This document shows positions 2,918 to 29,569 of a stretch of 36,214 nt of DNA, piece by piece. Within the stretch, counting starts at the first letter, position 1; every line of letters starts with the position of its first letter. The notes beneath the pieces were generated by a model, which did no database searches, had not been told where the DNA came from, and saw only the letters and a list, made by a program, of their open reading frames with translations. Made by a program: the position numbers and the translations under genes. Origin of the DNA: Rhodocyclales bacterium (GTDB taxonomy: Bacteria; Pseudomonadota; Gammaproteobacteria; Burkholderiales; Rhodocyclaceae); assembly GCA_016192435.1 (NCBI GenBank), contig JACPUD010000013.1:1-36214 (forward strand), given 5' to 3'.

Positions 2918-5233
2918 ATGAGTGCTATCAGCACATCTGAATCCGCTTCGACTCCGCTACCGGAAAAAATCGCCTTGCTGGTGCATGAGGCGCGCTGGCT
3001 GCTGGTGGGCCTCATCGGACTCTATCTGGGGCTGGTGCTCTGGGGTTTCGACAAGGCAGATCCGGGCTGGTCCCACGCGGCCGTGGTGGATCGCATCGCC
3101 AATCCGGGCGGACGCTTCGGCGCCTGGTTGAGTGATCTGCTGCTGTATCTGTTCGGGCTCTCCGCCTGGTGGTGGGTGGCTTTGCCATTATTTATGCTGG
3201 CATGGGGTTACCACCGCCTGAGCCACCTGTTCGGTGGCGACCGGCGGCCCCTGCTGATAGCCCTGTCGGGCTTTCTCATGCTGTTGCTGGCCAGTTGCGG
3301 CCTGGAGGCCATGCGCTTCTGGAGCCTGGCGCTTTCCCTGCCGCTGGGGCCGGGCGGCATGCTGGGTTTCGAGGTCGGCCGCCTCATCACGCTGTTTCTC
3401 GGCTATACCGGCGGCACCCTGATCTTGCTGGTGCTGGCGATGATCGGCTTCAGCCTGTTTACCGGCGCATCGTGGATAGTCATCGCCGAAAAGTTCGGCA
3501 TTCTGCTCGAGGGCGCCTATATCGGTCTGCGCAGCTTGTGGGACGGCTGGCAGGACAGGCGCTACGGCCGCGCCGTCGCCGAGCAACGCGAGGAAGTGGT
3601 GGAAACCGAGCGCCGCAAGTTCGAGGAAAGCCCTTTGCCGCCGGTCAGGATCGAGCCTGTCGAAATCGTCGTGCCGGTCGCGCCGAAGGCCGTGGCGCGG
3701 GCCGAAAAGGAGCGCCAGGCGCCCTTGTTCTTCGATGCTCCCGGCGGCGCCCTGCCTCCCCTGCATCTGTTGGCCGAACCCTCGCACAATCCCGCCGATC
3801 TCCCGGCCGCGGAAACCCTCGAATTCACTTCGCGCCTGATCGAGCGCAAGCTGGCCGATTTCAACGTCGAAGCCAAGGTGCTGACGGCCCACCCGGGGCC
3901 GGTGGTGACGCGCTACGAGATCGAGCCGGCCACCGGCGTCAAGGGCAGCCAGATCGTCGGTCTGGCCAAGGATCTGGCGCGCGCCCTGTCGCTGGTGTCG
4001 ATCCGCGTGGTCGAGACGGTGCCCGGCAAGTCCTGCATGGCGCTGGAACTGCCGAATCCGAAGCGGCAGATCGTGCGCCTGTCCGAAATCATCGGCTCAC
4101 AGGCCTACCACGGCATGCATTCGCCGCTTTCCGTTGCTTTAGGCAAGGACATCGGCGGTCAGCCGGTGGTGGTCGACCTGGCCAAGATGCCGCACCTCTT
4201 GGTGGCCGGCACCACCGGTTCGGGCAAGTCGGTCGGAGTCAATGCCATGATCCTGTCGCTGATCTACAAGTCCGAGCCCAAGGACGTGCGCATGATCATG
4301 GTCGACCCGAAGATGCTGGAGTTGTCGATCTACGAAGGCATTCCGCACCTGCTGGCGCCGGTGGTGACCGACATGACCAAGGCCGCCAACGCGCTGCACT
4401 GGTGCGTCGGTGAAATGGAACGGCGCTACAAACTGATGTCGGCGCTCGGCGTGCGCAACCTGTCGGGCTTCAACAGCAAGATCAATGAGGCGAAGAAGGC
4501 CGGCGAGCAAATCCCGAATCCCTTCTCGCTGACCGCCAATACCGAGATCGGCCCCGAGCCGCTGGAACCGCTGCCCTACATCGTGGTGGTGATCGACGAA
4601 CTGGCCGACCTCATGATGGTGGTGGGCAAGAAGATCGAGGAACTCATCGCGCGTCTGGCGCAGAAGGCGCGCGCTTCGGGCATCCATCTGATCCTGGCCA
4701 CGCAGCGGCCCAGCGTGGATGTGATCACCGGTCTGATCAAGGCCAACATTCCGACCCGCATTGCGTTCCAGGTGTCCTCCAAGATCGATTCGCGCACCAT
4801 TCTCGACCAGATGGGCGCCGAGGCGCTGCTCGGCCAGGGCGACATGCTGTTCCTGGCGCCGGGTACCGGCCTGCCGATTCGCGTGCATGGCGCCTTTGTT
4901 GCCGACGAGGAGGTGCATCACGTCGTCGATCACCTGAAGAAGGTCGGACCGGCCGACTACGTCGACGGCTTGCTCGACGGTCCGGCGGGCGACGAAGCGG
5001 AGTTTGGCGCTGGTGACACGGCGGGCGATGCCGAATCCGACCCGATGTACGACCAGGCCGTCGAAGTGGTGCTGAAGACGCGGCGGCCGTCGATCTCGCT
5101 GGTGCAGCGCCATCTGCGCATCGGCTACAACCGCGCCGCGCGCCTGATCGAAGCCATGGAGAAGGCCGGGCTGGTTTCGCCCATGAACGGCGCGGGCGGA
5201 CGCGAGGTGATTGCGCCGAACAGGGCTGAATAG
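2918..5233 (+). CDS. ftsK: DNA translocase FtsK
   Basis: A 771-residue double-stranded-DNA pump that clears chromosome termini through the division septum and activates XerCD recombination. The N-terminus has about four membrane segments (residues ~30-190), followed by a short charged linker; this is the compact beta-proteobacterial form rather than the 1300-residue E. coli type. The motor shows Walker A G431-TTGSGKS-438 and Walker [11 protein letters not shown] with D560/E561. The C-terminal gamma (KOPS-reading) winged helix begins near residue 705 ([20 protein letters not shown]). The linker between motor and gamma domain, [13 protein letters not shown], contains one of the dispersed short repeats described here. 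The start ATG has no obvious Shine-Dalgarno. lolA, rarA and serS follow on the same strand. Confidence 0.97.
5001..5022 (-). repeat. Dispersed short repeat, copy 1 (inside ftsK linker)
   Basis: On the minus strand it reads GCCGTGTCACCAGCGCC then AAACT, matching the family core with one extra A and a G-to-A change. It encodes FGAGDTA in the non-conserved linker between the motor and gamma domains. Confidence 0.6.
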
Positions 5234-5261
5234 GGCCGAATAGGGCCAAATCGGGCCGAGT
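5222..5261 (+). repeat. Four tandem 10-bp units at the ftsK stop
   Basis: The units AGGGCTGAAT, AGGGCCGAAT, AGGGCCAAAT and CGGGCCGAGT run head to tail. The ftsK stop codon (5231-5233) lies across the first junction. The unit resembles the TAGGGCCGACT half of the REP-like palindromes found after greB and norD, so this may be a degenerate relative. Confidence 0.6.
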
Positions 5262-5311
5262 AAAGCGCGGAATTAAGCGCGGTGCGGGGATGGATCGGGG
5301 ATAATTGCCCC

Positions 5312-5923
5312 ATGAAGCGACTTCTCTGCATTTTCGGCATCCTGATCGGCACCGCTGTTCCGGCATCGGCCGGCGGCCTCGACCAGCTCAAGAGCTTTCT
5401 CGAAACCAACCGCAGCGCCCGCGGCGTGTTCGTACAAACCGTGATCGCCAAGTCGGGGCGCAAGCCGCAACAGTCGGCGGGCATCTTCGCCTTGCAGCGT
5501 CCCGGCAAGTTTCGCTGGTCCTACGAAAAGCCCTACAAGCAGTTGCTGGTCAGCGACGGCAACAAGCTCTGGAGCTACGATCCCGATCTGAACCAGGTCG
5601 CGGTCAAGAAGCTCGGCACGGCCTTCGGTTCCAGCCCCGCTGCATTGCTCGCGGGCCAGGATCTGGACAAGCACTTCGTGCTCAAGGACGGCGCCGCGGC
5701 GGACGGCGTCGAGTTCGTCGAGGCCACGCCCAAGGGCGGCGACGCCAGCTTCGAGCGGGTCAAGATCGGTTTCGCCGCGAACCGGCCGGTGAGCATGGAA
5801 ATCCACGACAGCTTCGGCCAGGTCACGGCGCTGCGTTTCACCCAGTTCGAAGCCAATCCGGCCTTGCCGGCGGCGCTGTTCCGTTTTGTCGCACCGGCCG
5901 GGGCCGATGTTGTCGGCGACTGA
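5312..5923 (+). CDS. lolA: Outer-membrane lipoprotein carrier protein LolA
   Basis: A 203-residue periplasmic chaperone that takes lipoproteins from the LolCDE transporter to the outer-membrane receptor LolB. The start at ATG 5312 is chosen because it directly begins a signal peptide (MKRLLCIFGILIGTAVPASA). An upstream in-frame GTG at 5282 would bury that peptide. Family landmarks are visible: an early KSFLETNRSARGVFVQTV strand, then PGKFRWSYEKPYKQLLVSDG and KLWSYDPDLNQV, which build the half-barrel. GATAAT at 5300-5305 lies only seven bases before the ATG and no Shine-Dalgarno is visible, so initiation may be leaderless or nearly so if that box is used. Its 3' end overlaps rarA by 17 bases. 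ftsK-lolA-rarA order is common in Betaproteobacteria. Confidence 0.93.
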   Translation: MKRLLCIFGILIGTAVPASAGGLDQLKSFLETNRSARGVFVQTVIAKSGRKPQQSAGIFALQRPGKFRWSYEKPYKQLLVSDGNKLWSYDPDLNQVAVKKLGTAFGSSPAALLAGQDLDKHFVLKDGAAADGVEFVEATPKGGDASFERVKIGFAANRPVSMEIHDSFGQVTALRFTQFEANPALPAALFRFVAPAGADVVGD

Positions 5924-28789: not shown

Positions 28790-28819
28790 CCGTGACCATG
28801 TGAGCGGGAGAATGAAGCC

Positions 28820-29497
28820 ATGAGGATTCGCCGCGCCGTATCGCCAGCGCCAACTCTTGCACCGTCGGCCGCCGCTACGCACCGGCGCCGCCGCCTGCTG
28901 CTGCTGTCGCCGCTGCGCGTCTTGCTGCCGCGCGCCGCCGGCGCCGCGTCGGGCCTGGTGGCGACGCCGAGCCAGATGCTGGGCCCCTTCTACCCGCTGC
29001 GCCCCGACCCGGGGACCGGCAACGACCTCGCCACCGTGGACGGCAAGGGCCGCGCCCAGGGCAAGCCGCTGACCGTCGTCGGCCGTGTGCTCGATCGCGC
29101 CGGTCGCCCGCAGCCGGGCGTGCTGCTCGAAATCTGGCAGACCAACGCGCACGGCCGCTACCACCACCCGCACGACGACAGCCCGCAGCCGCTCGACCCG
29201 CAGTTCCGCGGCTATGGCCGCGCCACGACCGGCGCCGACGGCAGCTACCGCTTCCTCACGATCGAGCCGGTCGAGTATCCGGGGCGCACGCCGCATGTGC
29301 ATTTCCGCGCCAGCCGCGGCAAGCGCGAACTGCTGGTGACCCAGATGTACTTGCCCGGCGCGGCCGCCGCCAACGCGCGTGACGGCCTGTTCCTGGCGAT
29401 CCGCGACCCCGCGGCGCGGCGCGCGCTGCTCGGGCTGCCCGAGCCCGGGGCGGCGAATACCCTGCGCTTCGACATCGTGCTGGAGGCCGCGCGCTGA
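28820..29497 (+). CDS. Exported intradiol ring-cleavage dioxygenase-like protein
   Basis: A 225-residue protein of the protocatechuate 3,4-dioxygenase/catechol dioxygenase superfamily. The core has the non-heme iron pattern: a Tyr in VLLEIWQTNAHGRYHHPHDD, a second Tyr in the FRGYGRATTGADGSYRF strand and the His pair of TPHVHFRASRGKRELLVTQM. The N-terminus looks like a twin-arginine signal (HRRRRLLLLSPL ... LPRAAGAA), as found in other single-domain secreted members. Residues 6-14 (AVSPAPTLA) are encoded by dispersed repeat copy 8, inserted in the signal n-region. Substrate is unknown. A sequence-only call of aromatic ring cleavage is plausible. Confidence 0.75.
   Translation: MRIRRAVSPAPTLAPSAAATHRRRRLLLLSPLRVLLPRAAGAASGLVATPSQMLGPFYPLRPDPGTGNDLATVDGKGRAQGKPLTVVGRVLDRAGRPQPGVLLEIWQTNAHGRYHHPHDDSPQPLDPQFRGYGRATTGADGSYRFLTIEPVEYPGRTPHVHFRASRGKRELLVTQMYLPGAAAANARDGLFLAIRDPAARRALLGLPEPGAANTLRFDIVLEAAR
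28834..28861 (+). repeat. Dispersed short repeat, copy 8 (start of dioxygenase gene)
   Basis: Reads GCGCCGTATCGCCAGCGCC then AACTCTTGC, a very good match to consensus. It starts 14 bases after the ATG at 28820 and encodes AVSPAPTLA ahead of the twin-arginine motif. Confidence 0.75.
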
Positions 29498-29537
29498 GTT
29501 GCCGCGGCGGCTGCCAAGCCGCAGCTCGAGCCGATCC

Positions 29538-29569
29538 GCCGTCCCGCCAGCGCCAACTCTTGGCGCTGC
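29538..29569 (+). repeat. Dispersed short repeat, copy 9, extended to a perfect palindrome
   Basis: Reads CGCCGTCCCGCCAGCGCC then AACTCTTGGCGCTG. Here the CAGCGCCAA arm is completed by TTGGCGCTG across a CTC loop, giving nine perfect pairs. It lies in the 86-base gap between the convergent dioxygenase-like and DUF3079 genes. It may also serve as a transcription stop, though no T run follows. Confidence 0.75.

What the first reader, a model, noticed from the sequence alone, without database searches (positions are those of the whole stretch)
5001..29569. Nine copies of a short dispersed repeat (CGCCGTRTC + GCCAGCGCCAACT) in 36 kb, inside genes and between them
Copies lie at 5001, 10148, 11479, 13137, 17556, 22281, 26562, 28834 and 29538. 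Six are in genes with three or more different reading frames ([21 protein letters not shown]) and always in linkers, spacers or tails. One is in a signal n-region and two are intergenic. The conservation is thus of DNA, not protein. Both orientations occur. Density near one per 4 kb recalls uptake-signal sequences or a mobile short repeat. A protein-binding or nucleoid site is another option.
Basis: seen in the sequence. Interest (0 to 1): 0.7.

Follow-up and report, generated by a model that had tools for sequence, protein, structure and literature searches.

The report
Genome-wide DNA tag in Sulfuritalea bacteria
A DNA word of about 25 letters is scattered several hundred times through the genomes of one genus of environmental bacteria and changes its spelling in step at many places when a lineage changes it, which is how the DNA-uptake tags of Neisseria and Haemophilus behave, although a standard uptake gene was not found here and nothing has been tested at the bench.

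Summary
The repeat is real and larger than reported. The exact 13-mer occurs 305 times in the window's genome, its reversed control 0 times. The unit, TCGCCGTRYCGCCAGCGCCRACTYTTG, is non-palindromic and lies on both strands, in five reading frames and between genes, three-fold enriched between convergent genes. Thirty of 31 genomes of the genus (Sulfuritalea by record titles) carry it in bulk; G016 has nearly lost it; 30 outside genomes have only stray 13-mers. It has two clade-specific spellings, CCAACT (3 genomes, one clade) and CCGACT (27); 10 of 11 orthologous site groups show the switch. Of 88 missing or weak orthologous sites 1 is a clean gap, so it does not look like an inserted unit. 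It is missing from a conjugative-element-like stretch, yet at least 120 viral stretches carry the CCGACT form. Short elements, mostly 24, 27 or 36 nt, sit precisely inside it. Best reading: a tag that works like an uptake sequence, kept by sequence-specific DNA exchange, unrelated to those of Neisseriaceae and Pasteurellaceae. Against: no small ComEA-type protein over cut-off in motif-rich genomes, DprA not found in one 99%-complete motif-rich genome, no receptor, no experiment.

The parts
4998..5024 (-). Motif copy with one extra A, in ftsK between the ATPase and gamma domains
   Evidence: 23.1 bits; Pfam FtsK_SpoIIIE 388-600, FtsK_gamma 706-766
6572..6598 (+).
   Evidence: 31.1 bits; sites at the same place in G015, G027, G001, G004, G007, G025
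10146..10172 (+). Motif copy, antisense in the C-terminal tail of the YgiQ-type radical SAM gene
   Evidence: 40.4 bits; 11 of 12 comparison genomes align here; interrupted in G001 and G010, 8.6-bit relic in G016
11477..11503 (+). Motif copy, antisense in a variable stretch of the same YgiQ-type gene
   Evidence: 29.8 bits; interrupted in G004
13135..13161 (+). Motif copy in the Pro/Ala-rich linker of a TonB-type gene (VAPAPTLA)
   Evidence: 37.5 bits; TonB_C at 166-243. The gene caller put it in the overlapping opposite-strand frame
17555..17581 (+). Motif copy, intergenic between flhC and rdgC
   Evidence: 30.5 bits; genes by Pfam
22277..22303 (-). Motif copy in the COX15/CtaA gene
   Evidence: 35.8 bits; interrupted in G027; Pfam COX15-CtaA
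26558..26584 (-). Motif copy, antisense in a gene with a weak VWA-domain match
   Evidence: 29.9 bits; in G004 and G010 the stretch reads, by eye, as the opposite strand of the motif
28833..28859 (+). Motif copy in codons 5-14 of a dioxygenase gene (looks like a signal-peptide n-region)
   Evidence: 40.3 bits; Pfam Dioxygenase_C
29536..29562 (+). Motif copy, intergenic between the convergent dioxygenase and hemerythrin genes
   Evidence: 37.3 bits; genes 28820-29497 (+) and 29805-30293 (-)

Best explanation
A genus-wide DNA tag that works like a DNA uptake sequence. SHOWN: a 25-27 bp non-palindromic motif at about 0.2 per kb (about 630 sites in G000 and 820 in G001, extrapolated from samples), about equal on both strands, placed mostly where it does little damage, held to a sharp consensus, nearly gone from one lineage, and spelled with A or G at one position according to clade, at orthologous sites. 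INFERRED: a trans-acting factor reads the motif and gives DNA that bears it an advantage in entering cells of the same lineage or in being recombined there. The most likely route is type IV pilus-dependent uptake through ComEC, with a periplasmic step that does not use a recognisable ComEA.
For: Excess: 305 vs 0; 77 sites of 15 bits or more in 427 kb of G000 and 86 in 400 kb of G001, 0 in Markov-resampled sequence, few between background and real sites (the profile was trained on the same sample). Spellings: CCAACT 13-mer 305, 338, 387 in G000, G015, G027 and 0-6 in the other 28 genus genomes; CCGACT form 92-523 in 27 genomes, 53-67 in the three A-type genomes, 26 in G016; A-type genomes form one clade, 100% bootstrap. 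Switch: 91 of 103 A-clade to G-clade orthologous site pairs are A to G; 10 of 11 site groups. Retention: 425 of 513 comparisons keep the site (G016 left out as subject); G016 keeps 0 of 30. In place: 1 of 88 missing or weak sites has a gap of 20 nt or more. No strong polarity: 44 of 78 on the leading strand in G001; 242 forward, 260 reverse. Permissive sites: convergent gaps 20 observed vs 6.9 expected, divergent 5 vs 9.1, and two inverted pairs. 0 sites in 10 bins of 5 kb with atypical coding. Machinery: ComEC in 30 of 31, DprA over cut-off in 28 of 31.
Against: ComEA: TIGR00426 over cut-off in 0 of 31. PF12836 hits of the motif-rich genomes sit in frames of 546 aa or more; small frames over cut-off occur only in motif-poor G016. 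A lax search of 8 genomes added only weak hits (best small one 20.0 bits, E 0.003, 324-aa frame in G017), not examined. DprA is not found in G000 (83% complete), G013 (80%) or G004 (99% complete, 484 copies of the motif). PilQ and PilT were not searched; the GspH-domain hits in 30 of 31 include type II secretion proteins. ComEC and DprA also ring in E. coli (controls). G016 keeps ComEC and DprA, so no tested gene explains its loss. Pairwise motif identity at kept sites (0.78) is only modestly above that of flanks (0.70). Density is below the thousands per genome of DUS and USS. At least 120 viral stretches carry the motif. No receptor identified.
Confidence: 0.45

Rival explanations
1. A self-recognition or recombination signal inside the cell (works like Chi): a nuclease-recombinase or defence complex spares or processes DNA that carries the motif; host and phages both keep it.
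For: 28 of the 80 viral loci held have 2 or more sites. Two of three loci scanned carry phage-type genes. Does not need ComEA.
Against: No strong strand polarity (44 of 78 on the leading strand), whereas Chi is polar (recalled). 25 bp is far longer than known Chi sites (recalled). Phages could also carry a host uptake tag.
Confidence: 0.19
2. A binding site for a chromosome-organising or other DNA-binding protein, kept by selection at each site.
For: Sharp conservation; slightly even spacing (CV 0.763 vs 0.868 simulated, P 0.095 in G000; 0.748 vs 0.900, P 0.022 in G001); a change of the protein could drag all sites to a new spelling.
Against: Selection on each of several hundred apparently dispensable sites is hard to sustain (inference); few sites in divergent gaps (5 vs 9.1) speaks against regulation; sites shift, flip or are interrupted between species; phages carry it.
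Confidence: 0.17
3. A short interspersed mobile repeat (REP- or MITE-like) that inserted at these places.
For: Dispersed copies in both orientations; variants with inserts of 24-38 nt exist; one clean 26-nt absence (G007 L215:4749 against G027), and 9 of 59 'absent' comparisons have partial gaps of 10-19 nt.
Against: The motif is not palindromic and folds only weakly; 1 of 88 missing or weak sites is a clean gap; sites are shared by species whose flanks average 0.70 identity; step-wise respelling is not expected of relics.
Confidence: 0.1
4. Chance or codon-usage effect of a GC-rich genome.
For: GC-rich k-mers abound in the window.
Against: 305 vs 0; 0 profile sites in resampled sequence; five frames and intergenic sites; its k-mers rank first among over-represented 11-mers and 12-mers in both samples.
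Confidence: 0.01

Closest known systems
DNA uptake sequence (DUS) of Neisseriaceae
   Same: Short motif of the core genome, inside genes and between them, inverted pairs between genes, clade-specific dialects, absent from some genomes of the family (passages of PMC3630211).
   Different: Unrelated sequence; about 25 bp rather than 10-12; several-fold sparser; no ComP or other receptor identified; no ComEA found; uptake function untested.
Uptake signal sequence (USS) of Pasteurellaceae
   Same: Short motif with a few types that differ by a few bases (passages of PMC12616744); a core with T-rich flanks in a unit of similar length (recalled).
   Different: Different sequence and class of bacteria; sparser; a minor-pilin receptor is predicted there, none is proposed here.
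Chi recombination sites
   Same: Hundreds of copies per genome and presence in phages (recalled for Chi).
   Different: No strong strand polarity, about three times longer, clade spellings.
REP elements, MITEs, Rickettsia palindromic elements
   Same: Dispersed short repeats, some in frame inside genes (recalled); the inserts found inside the motif look like this class.
   Different: The motif itself is not palindromic and is hardly ever seen as an insertion.

Membership tests
DUS/USS uptake sequences | One short non-palindromic motif vastly over-represented in the genome | tested here: met
DUS/USS uptake sequences | Both strands, no replication polarity | tested here: met
   (44 of 78 leading; two stretches at the origin left out)
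DUS/USS uptake sequences | Permissive placement, intergenic inverted pairs | tested here: met
   convergent enrichment; inverted pairs exist but only 2 in the fragments scanned
DUS/USS uptake sequences | Clade-specific dialects | tested here: met
DUS/USS uptake sequences | Depleted in foreign DNA | tested here: inconclusive
   0 sites in 10 atypical bins, one of the stretches conjugative-element-like by eye; but at least 120 viral stretches carry it
DUS/USS uptake sequences | Conserved transformation genes ComEC and DprA | tested here: inconclusive
   ComEC 30 of 31; DprA 28 of 31, missing in 99%-complete G004; both occur in bacteria not known as competent. Type IV pilus secretin and retraction ATPase not searched
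DUS/USS uptake sequences | ComEA-type periplasmic DNA receptor (usual part of Gram-negative transformation, recalled) | tested here: not met
DUS/USS uptake sequences | Thousands of copies per genome, up to 1% of the chromosome | tested here: not met
   about 630-820 sites, 0.5-0.6% of the sequence (extrapolated)
DUS/USS uptake sequences | Specific receptor and preferential uptake of tagged DNA | not testable with these tools
   needs an experiment
Chi sites | Polarity with respect to replication | tested here: not met
   sampled stretches of one complete genome
MITE/REP mobile repeats | Inverted-repeat structure | tested here: not met
   C at position -1 stays C in both spellings although its would-be partner at position 9 changes
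MITE/REP mobile repeats | Clean insertion against orthologues that lack it | tested here: not met
   1 of 88 missing or weak sites

The most novel reading that the evidence does not exclude
A third, independently evolved class of DNA 'passport': a tag of about 25 bp with clade-specific spellings in an environmental betaproteobacterial genus, read by a DNA-entry or self-recognition route that does not use ComEA, carried also by phages, and itself used as a safe landing site by a family of tiny, mostly frame-preserving insertion elements.
Probability: 0.35. Interest if true: 0.9.

Novelty: new variant of a known kind. Interest (0 to 1): 0.75.

Why it matters
Uptake sequences are stated to be known from only two families (PMC12616744, passage). 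An unrelated third case, with 31 species-level genomes, two spellings, one lineage that nearly lost it and orthologous sites that differ in step, would let the open question of whether such tags spread by selection or by the bias of uptake be tested by comparison. If it is not an uptake tag, then an unknown sequence-specific process acts on hundreds of sites in these genomes, and phages carry the same word.

Tried and rejected
Considered and rejected: chance or codon usage; protein-level repeat (five frames); promoter or operator site (5 vs 9.1 in divergent gaps); strongly polar Chi/KOPS-type site; inserted mobile unit; hairpin site (partner of position -1 changes without compensation); a replacement motif in G016 (no dispersed motif of this size stood out in 354 kb). 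Tried without result: linking the loss in G016 to ComEC or DprA (both present there); finding a receptor by clustering minor pilins (too mixed to single one out); a literature record (listings showed nothing on this motif or genus).

Limits and mends. Confidence in the uptake reading was lowered from 0.50 to 0.45, and two rivals raised by 0.02, on checking my calls, because DprA is missing in a 99%-complete motif-rich genome and pilus machinery was not searched beyond GspH-domain proteins. The profile was trained on the sample it was then run on. One search's fold of L142 used wrong coordinates and is disregarded; the two other inserts folded there are only about 1 sd better than shuffles, so I do not call them proven hairpins. 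Rows dropped: gaps over 600 bp in the intergenic count; the first and last of 20 stretches in the polarity count; core contexts within 70 bases of a locus end. The G000 sample (391 kb plus the window) came from long contigs high on a list, not at random; the G001 stretches were evenly spaced except one chosen for the window's orthologue. The gene caller is home-made, so its non-coding share includes uncalled genes. Some of the 80 viral loci come from the same contig. Both collection scans say that records of the window's genome or very near ones may be left out, so the 0 for the CCAACT form in viral contigs may be an underestimate.
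Full report
WHAT IS THERE. The nine copies reported are in the window, seven with the exact 13-mer and two with one change; the exact left block is at four of them. The 13-mer occurs 305 times in the window's genome (3.52 Mb, 148 contigs; 146 forward, 159 reverse); the pattern read backwards occurs 0 times. Aligning copies extends the unit to TCGCCGTRYCGCCAGCGCCRACTYTTG with sharp edges. A 27-position profile, trained on the same sample, finds 77 sites of at least 15 bits in 427,264 bases of this genome and 86 in 400,000 bases of G001, none in order-1 resampled sequence, and few hits between background and real sites. 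The window itself has ten sites, one more than reported.

WHO HAS IT. A 30-nt form found 26 stretches in 85,000 named genomes; titles read Sulfuritalea, Sulfurisoma, Rhodocyclales or Rhodocyclaceae bacterium, uncultured beta proteobacterium, Betaproteobacteria bacterium and, once, Burkholderiaceae bacterium. G001, one contig of 3,802,648 bases, is probably S. hydrogenivorans sk43H (recalled). Of 31 genomes of the genus, three (G000, G015, G027) have 305-387 copies of the CCAACT 13-mer and the other 28 have 0-6; 30 genomes of other genera have 0-2. For the CCGACT form (GCCRGCGCCGACT) 27 genomes have 92-523 copies, the three A-type genomes 53-67 and G016 26; the 30 outside genomes 0-15. No profile site of 20 bits or more was found in 200 kb each of two other genera of the family.

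WHERE IT SITS. With a home-made gene caller, 49 of 77 sites in G000 are coding, 27 intergenic and 1 at an edge, against a called coding fraction of 0.772; in G001 50 of 86 are coding and 36 intergenic. Five of six frames are used in G000 and four in G001, so proteins contain RRVASAN or RRVASAD, AVSPAPTLA, VGAGDTA or KLALAARR-like stretches; residues follow the spelling, as in RarA (STNF in G000, SADF in G001). The two consensus spellings contain no stop in any frame. In gaps of up to 600 bp, convergent gaps hold 20 sites (6.9 expected), tandem 17 (25.9), divergent 5 (9.1); two inverted pairs were found in G001, and the one folded makes a 25-bp stem. There is no strong polarity in G001: 44 of 78 sites are on the leading strand. 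Spacing is slightly more even than random, weakly significant in one of two genomes (P 0.095 and 0.022). Ten 5-kb bins with atypical coding have 0 sites; 20 bins below 60% GC have 2. A 20-kb stretch without sites (L136) looks by eye like a conjugative element.

HOW IT EVOLVES. Orthologous DNA was compared between 13 genomes of the genus. Leaving G016 aside as a subject, 425 of 513 site comparisons keep the site; pairwise identity of the motif at kept sites is 0.78 against 0.70 in the flanks, a modest difference because the spelling and the two loose positions vary. Between the A-type clade and the others, 91 of 103 kept pairs read A on one side and G on the other; within clades 30 of 36 (A-type) and 173 of 183 (G-type) pairs agree on the expected letter. 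In site groups, 10 of 11 show the switch. Comparisons are counted in both directions and groups share ancestry, so the 11 groups are the safer number; genome-wide counts show the same, though orthology was tested only for these groups. The A-type genomes form a clade with 100% bootstrap in an unrooted tree of five window genes from 15 genomes; G016 lies next to G012 and G021 with weak support (37%) inside an 88% clan. G016 keeps 0 of 30 orthologous comparisons; 18 of them fall on two relic places of 8.6 and 7.3 bits, scores that chance also gives about ten times in 350 kb, so loss rather than primary absence is likely but not proved. G016 has 4 sites of 20 bits or more in 354 kb, against 65 in 391 kb of G000 and 75 in 400 kb of G001. 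Where a site is missing or weak elsewhere, a gap of 20 nt or more is seen once in 88; partial gaps of 10-19 nt were seen in 9 of 59 'absent' cases. Hundreds of copies carrying one letter in one clade and another letter in the rest, at orthologous places where tested, is not what neutral relics do; it asks for something in trans that reads the motif.

INSERTS INSIDE THE MOTIF. The core GGRATWCCGCTTCGC occurs 2-50 times in each of 31 genus genomes and 0-1 times in each of 30 outside genomes. Of 41 distinct exact-core contexts held, 24 give a site of at least 20 bits when the insert is skipped, against 1 of 400 random positions; the other 17 do not. Insert lengths, as inferred by best score in those 24, are 24 nt (8), 27 nt (4), 36 nt (11) and 38 nt (1); 23 of 24 are multiples of three. 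Ten of the 24 split the motif before position 9 and ten more lie between positions -3 and 0. The four example inserts have no stop in any frame. Sister species have the same site uninterrupted (window sites 10146, 11477 and 22277), so there the inserts came second. The motif thus also serves as a landing site. Folds of two inserts are only about one sd better than shuffles.

PHAGES. The 80 loci held contain 126 sites in 91 distinct contexts, 124 in the G spelling; beyond the one site that brought each locus in, the density is 0.065 per kb. Of three loci scanned for domains (10 proteins), two show phage-type proteins (Bro-N and polyvalent-protein domains; primase-helicase D5_N) and the third only RadC. 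So viruses, presumably of such hosts, carry the tag too; some contigs of that collection may be cellular DNA.

MECHANISM. The pattern resembles DUS and USS: dialects, permissive placement, inverted pairs, absence from some lineages (passages of PMC3630211). [quoted passage not shown] ComEC is present in 30 of 31 genomes, DprA in 28 of 31 (not in G000, G013 and the 99%-complete G004) and GspH-domain proteins in 30 of 31, some of them in gene groups that look like minor-pilin operons. The main objection is ComEA: no genome passes TIGR00426 (0 of 31), the PF12836 hits of motif-rich genomes sit in frames of 546 aa or more (mostly about 800 aa, one of them a Tex-like protein by recall), and small ones over cut-off occur only in G016, two beside genes that look by eye like multihaem cytochromes and one in a GspK-like gene. 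A lax search of 8 genomes added only weak, unexamined hits. Among 18 outside genomes small HHH_3 frames over cut-off were found in 9, including two of six of the same family, so the absence is not peculiar to this genus. I therefore say that it works like an uptake sequence, with probability 0.45, and do not file it as a member.

LITERATURE. Searches for the 13-mer (one unrelated paper listed), Accumulibacter with natural transformation (made before the genus was known), DNA uptake sequence with dialect (44 papers, 20 listed), Sulfuritalea with uptake sequence, DNA uptake sequence with Rhodocyclaceae, uptake signal sequence with betaproteobacteria, and Sulfuritalea with repeat and competence showed nothing on this motif (listings only). 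Of two papers passages were seen; none was read whole.

Noticed in passing
L142:2785-, L055:1787+, L162:19667+ and 21 further contexts: Short elements, mostly 24, 27 or 36 nt, with a shared core sit at a few points inside the motif; sister species have the site uninterrupted where compared.
   Followed up: partly
L345-L424 (80 partial IMG/VR loci): At least 120 viral stretches carry the motif; in the 80 loci held, 124 of 126 sites have the CCGACT spelling, in 91 distinct contexts.
   Followed up: partly
window 26558-26584; G004, G010: The same motif stretch is turned round in G004 and G010: about 20 bp between its CGGCG/CGCCG ends read as the reverse complement (by eye).
   Followed up: no
window 21751-21826 and 27875-28033: A different, REP-like repeat (GTAGGGCCGACTTCAGTCGGCC), three tandem units of 38 bp plus an inverted copy 6 kb away.
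   Followed up: no
L136 (G001 1,900,001-1,920,000): GC 0.55 stretch with 0 motifs that looks by eye like a conjugative element with F-type transfer genes, near a sign change of GC skew.
   Followed up: partly
L300-L309 (G034): Another genus of the family has its own abundant repeat; overlapping k-mers spell CCGCCGCTCCCACAG.
   Followed up: no
L274, L278 (G016): Two small helix-hairpin-helix proteins beside genes that look by eye like multihaem cytochromes, found over cut-off only in the genome that nearly lost the motif.
   Followed up: no
L240 (1500-); G016 at window 11477: A second kind of insert, CCCCAAGGGGACTTCCTTCGGGG-like, also lies in or next to the motif.
   Followed up: no
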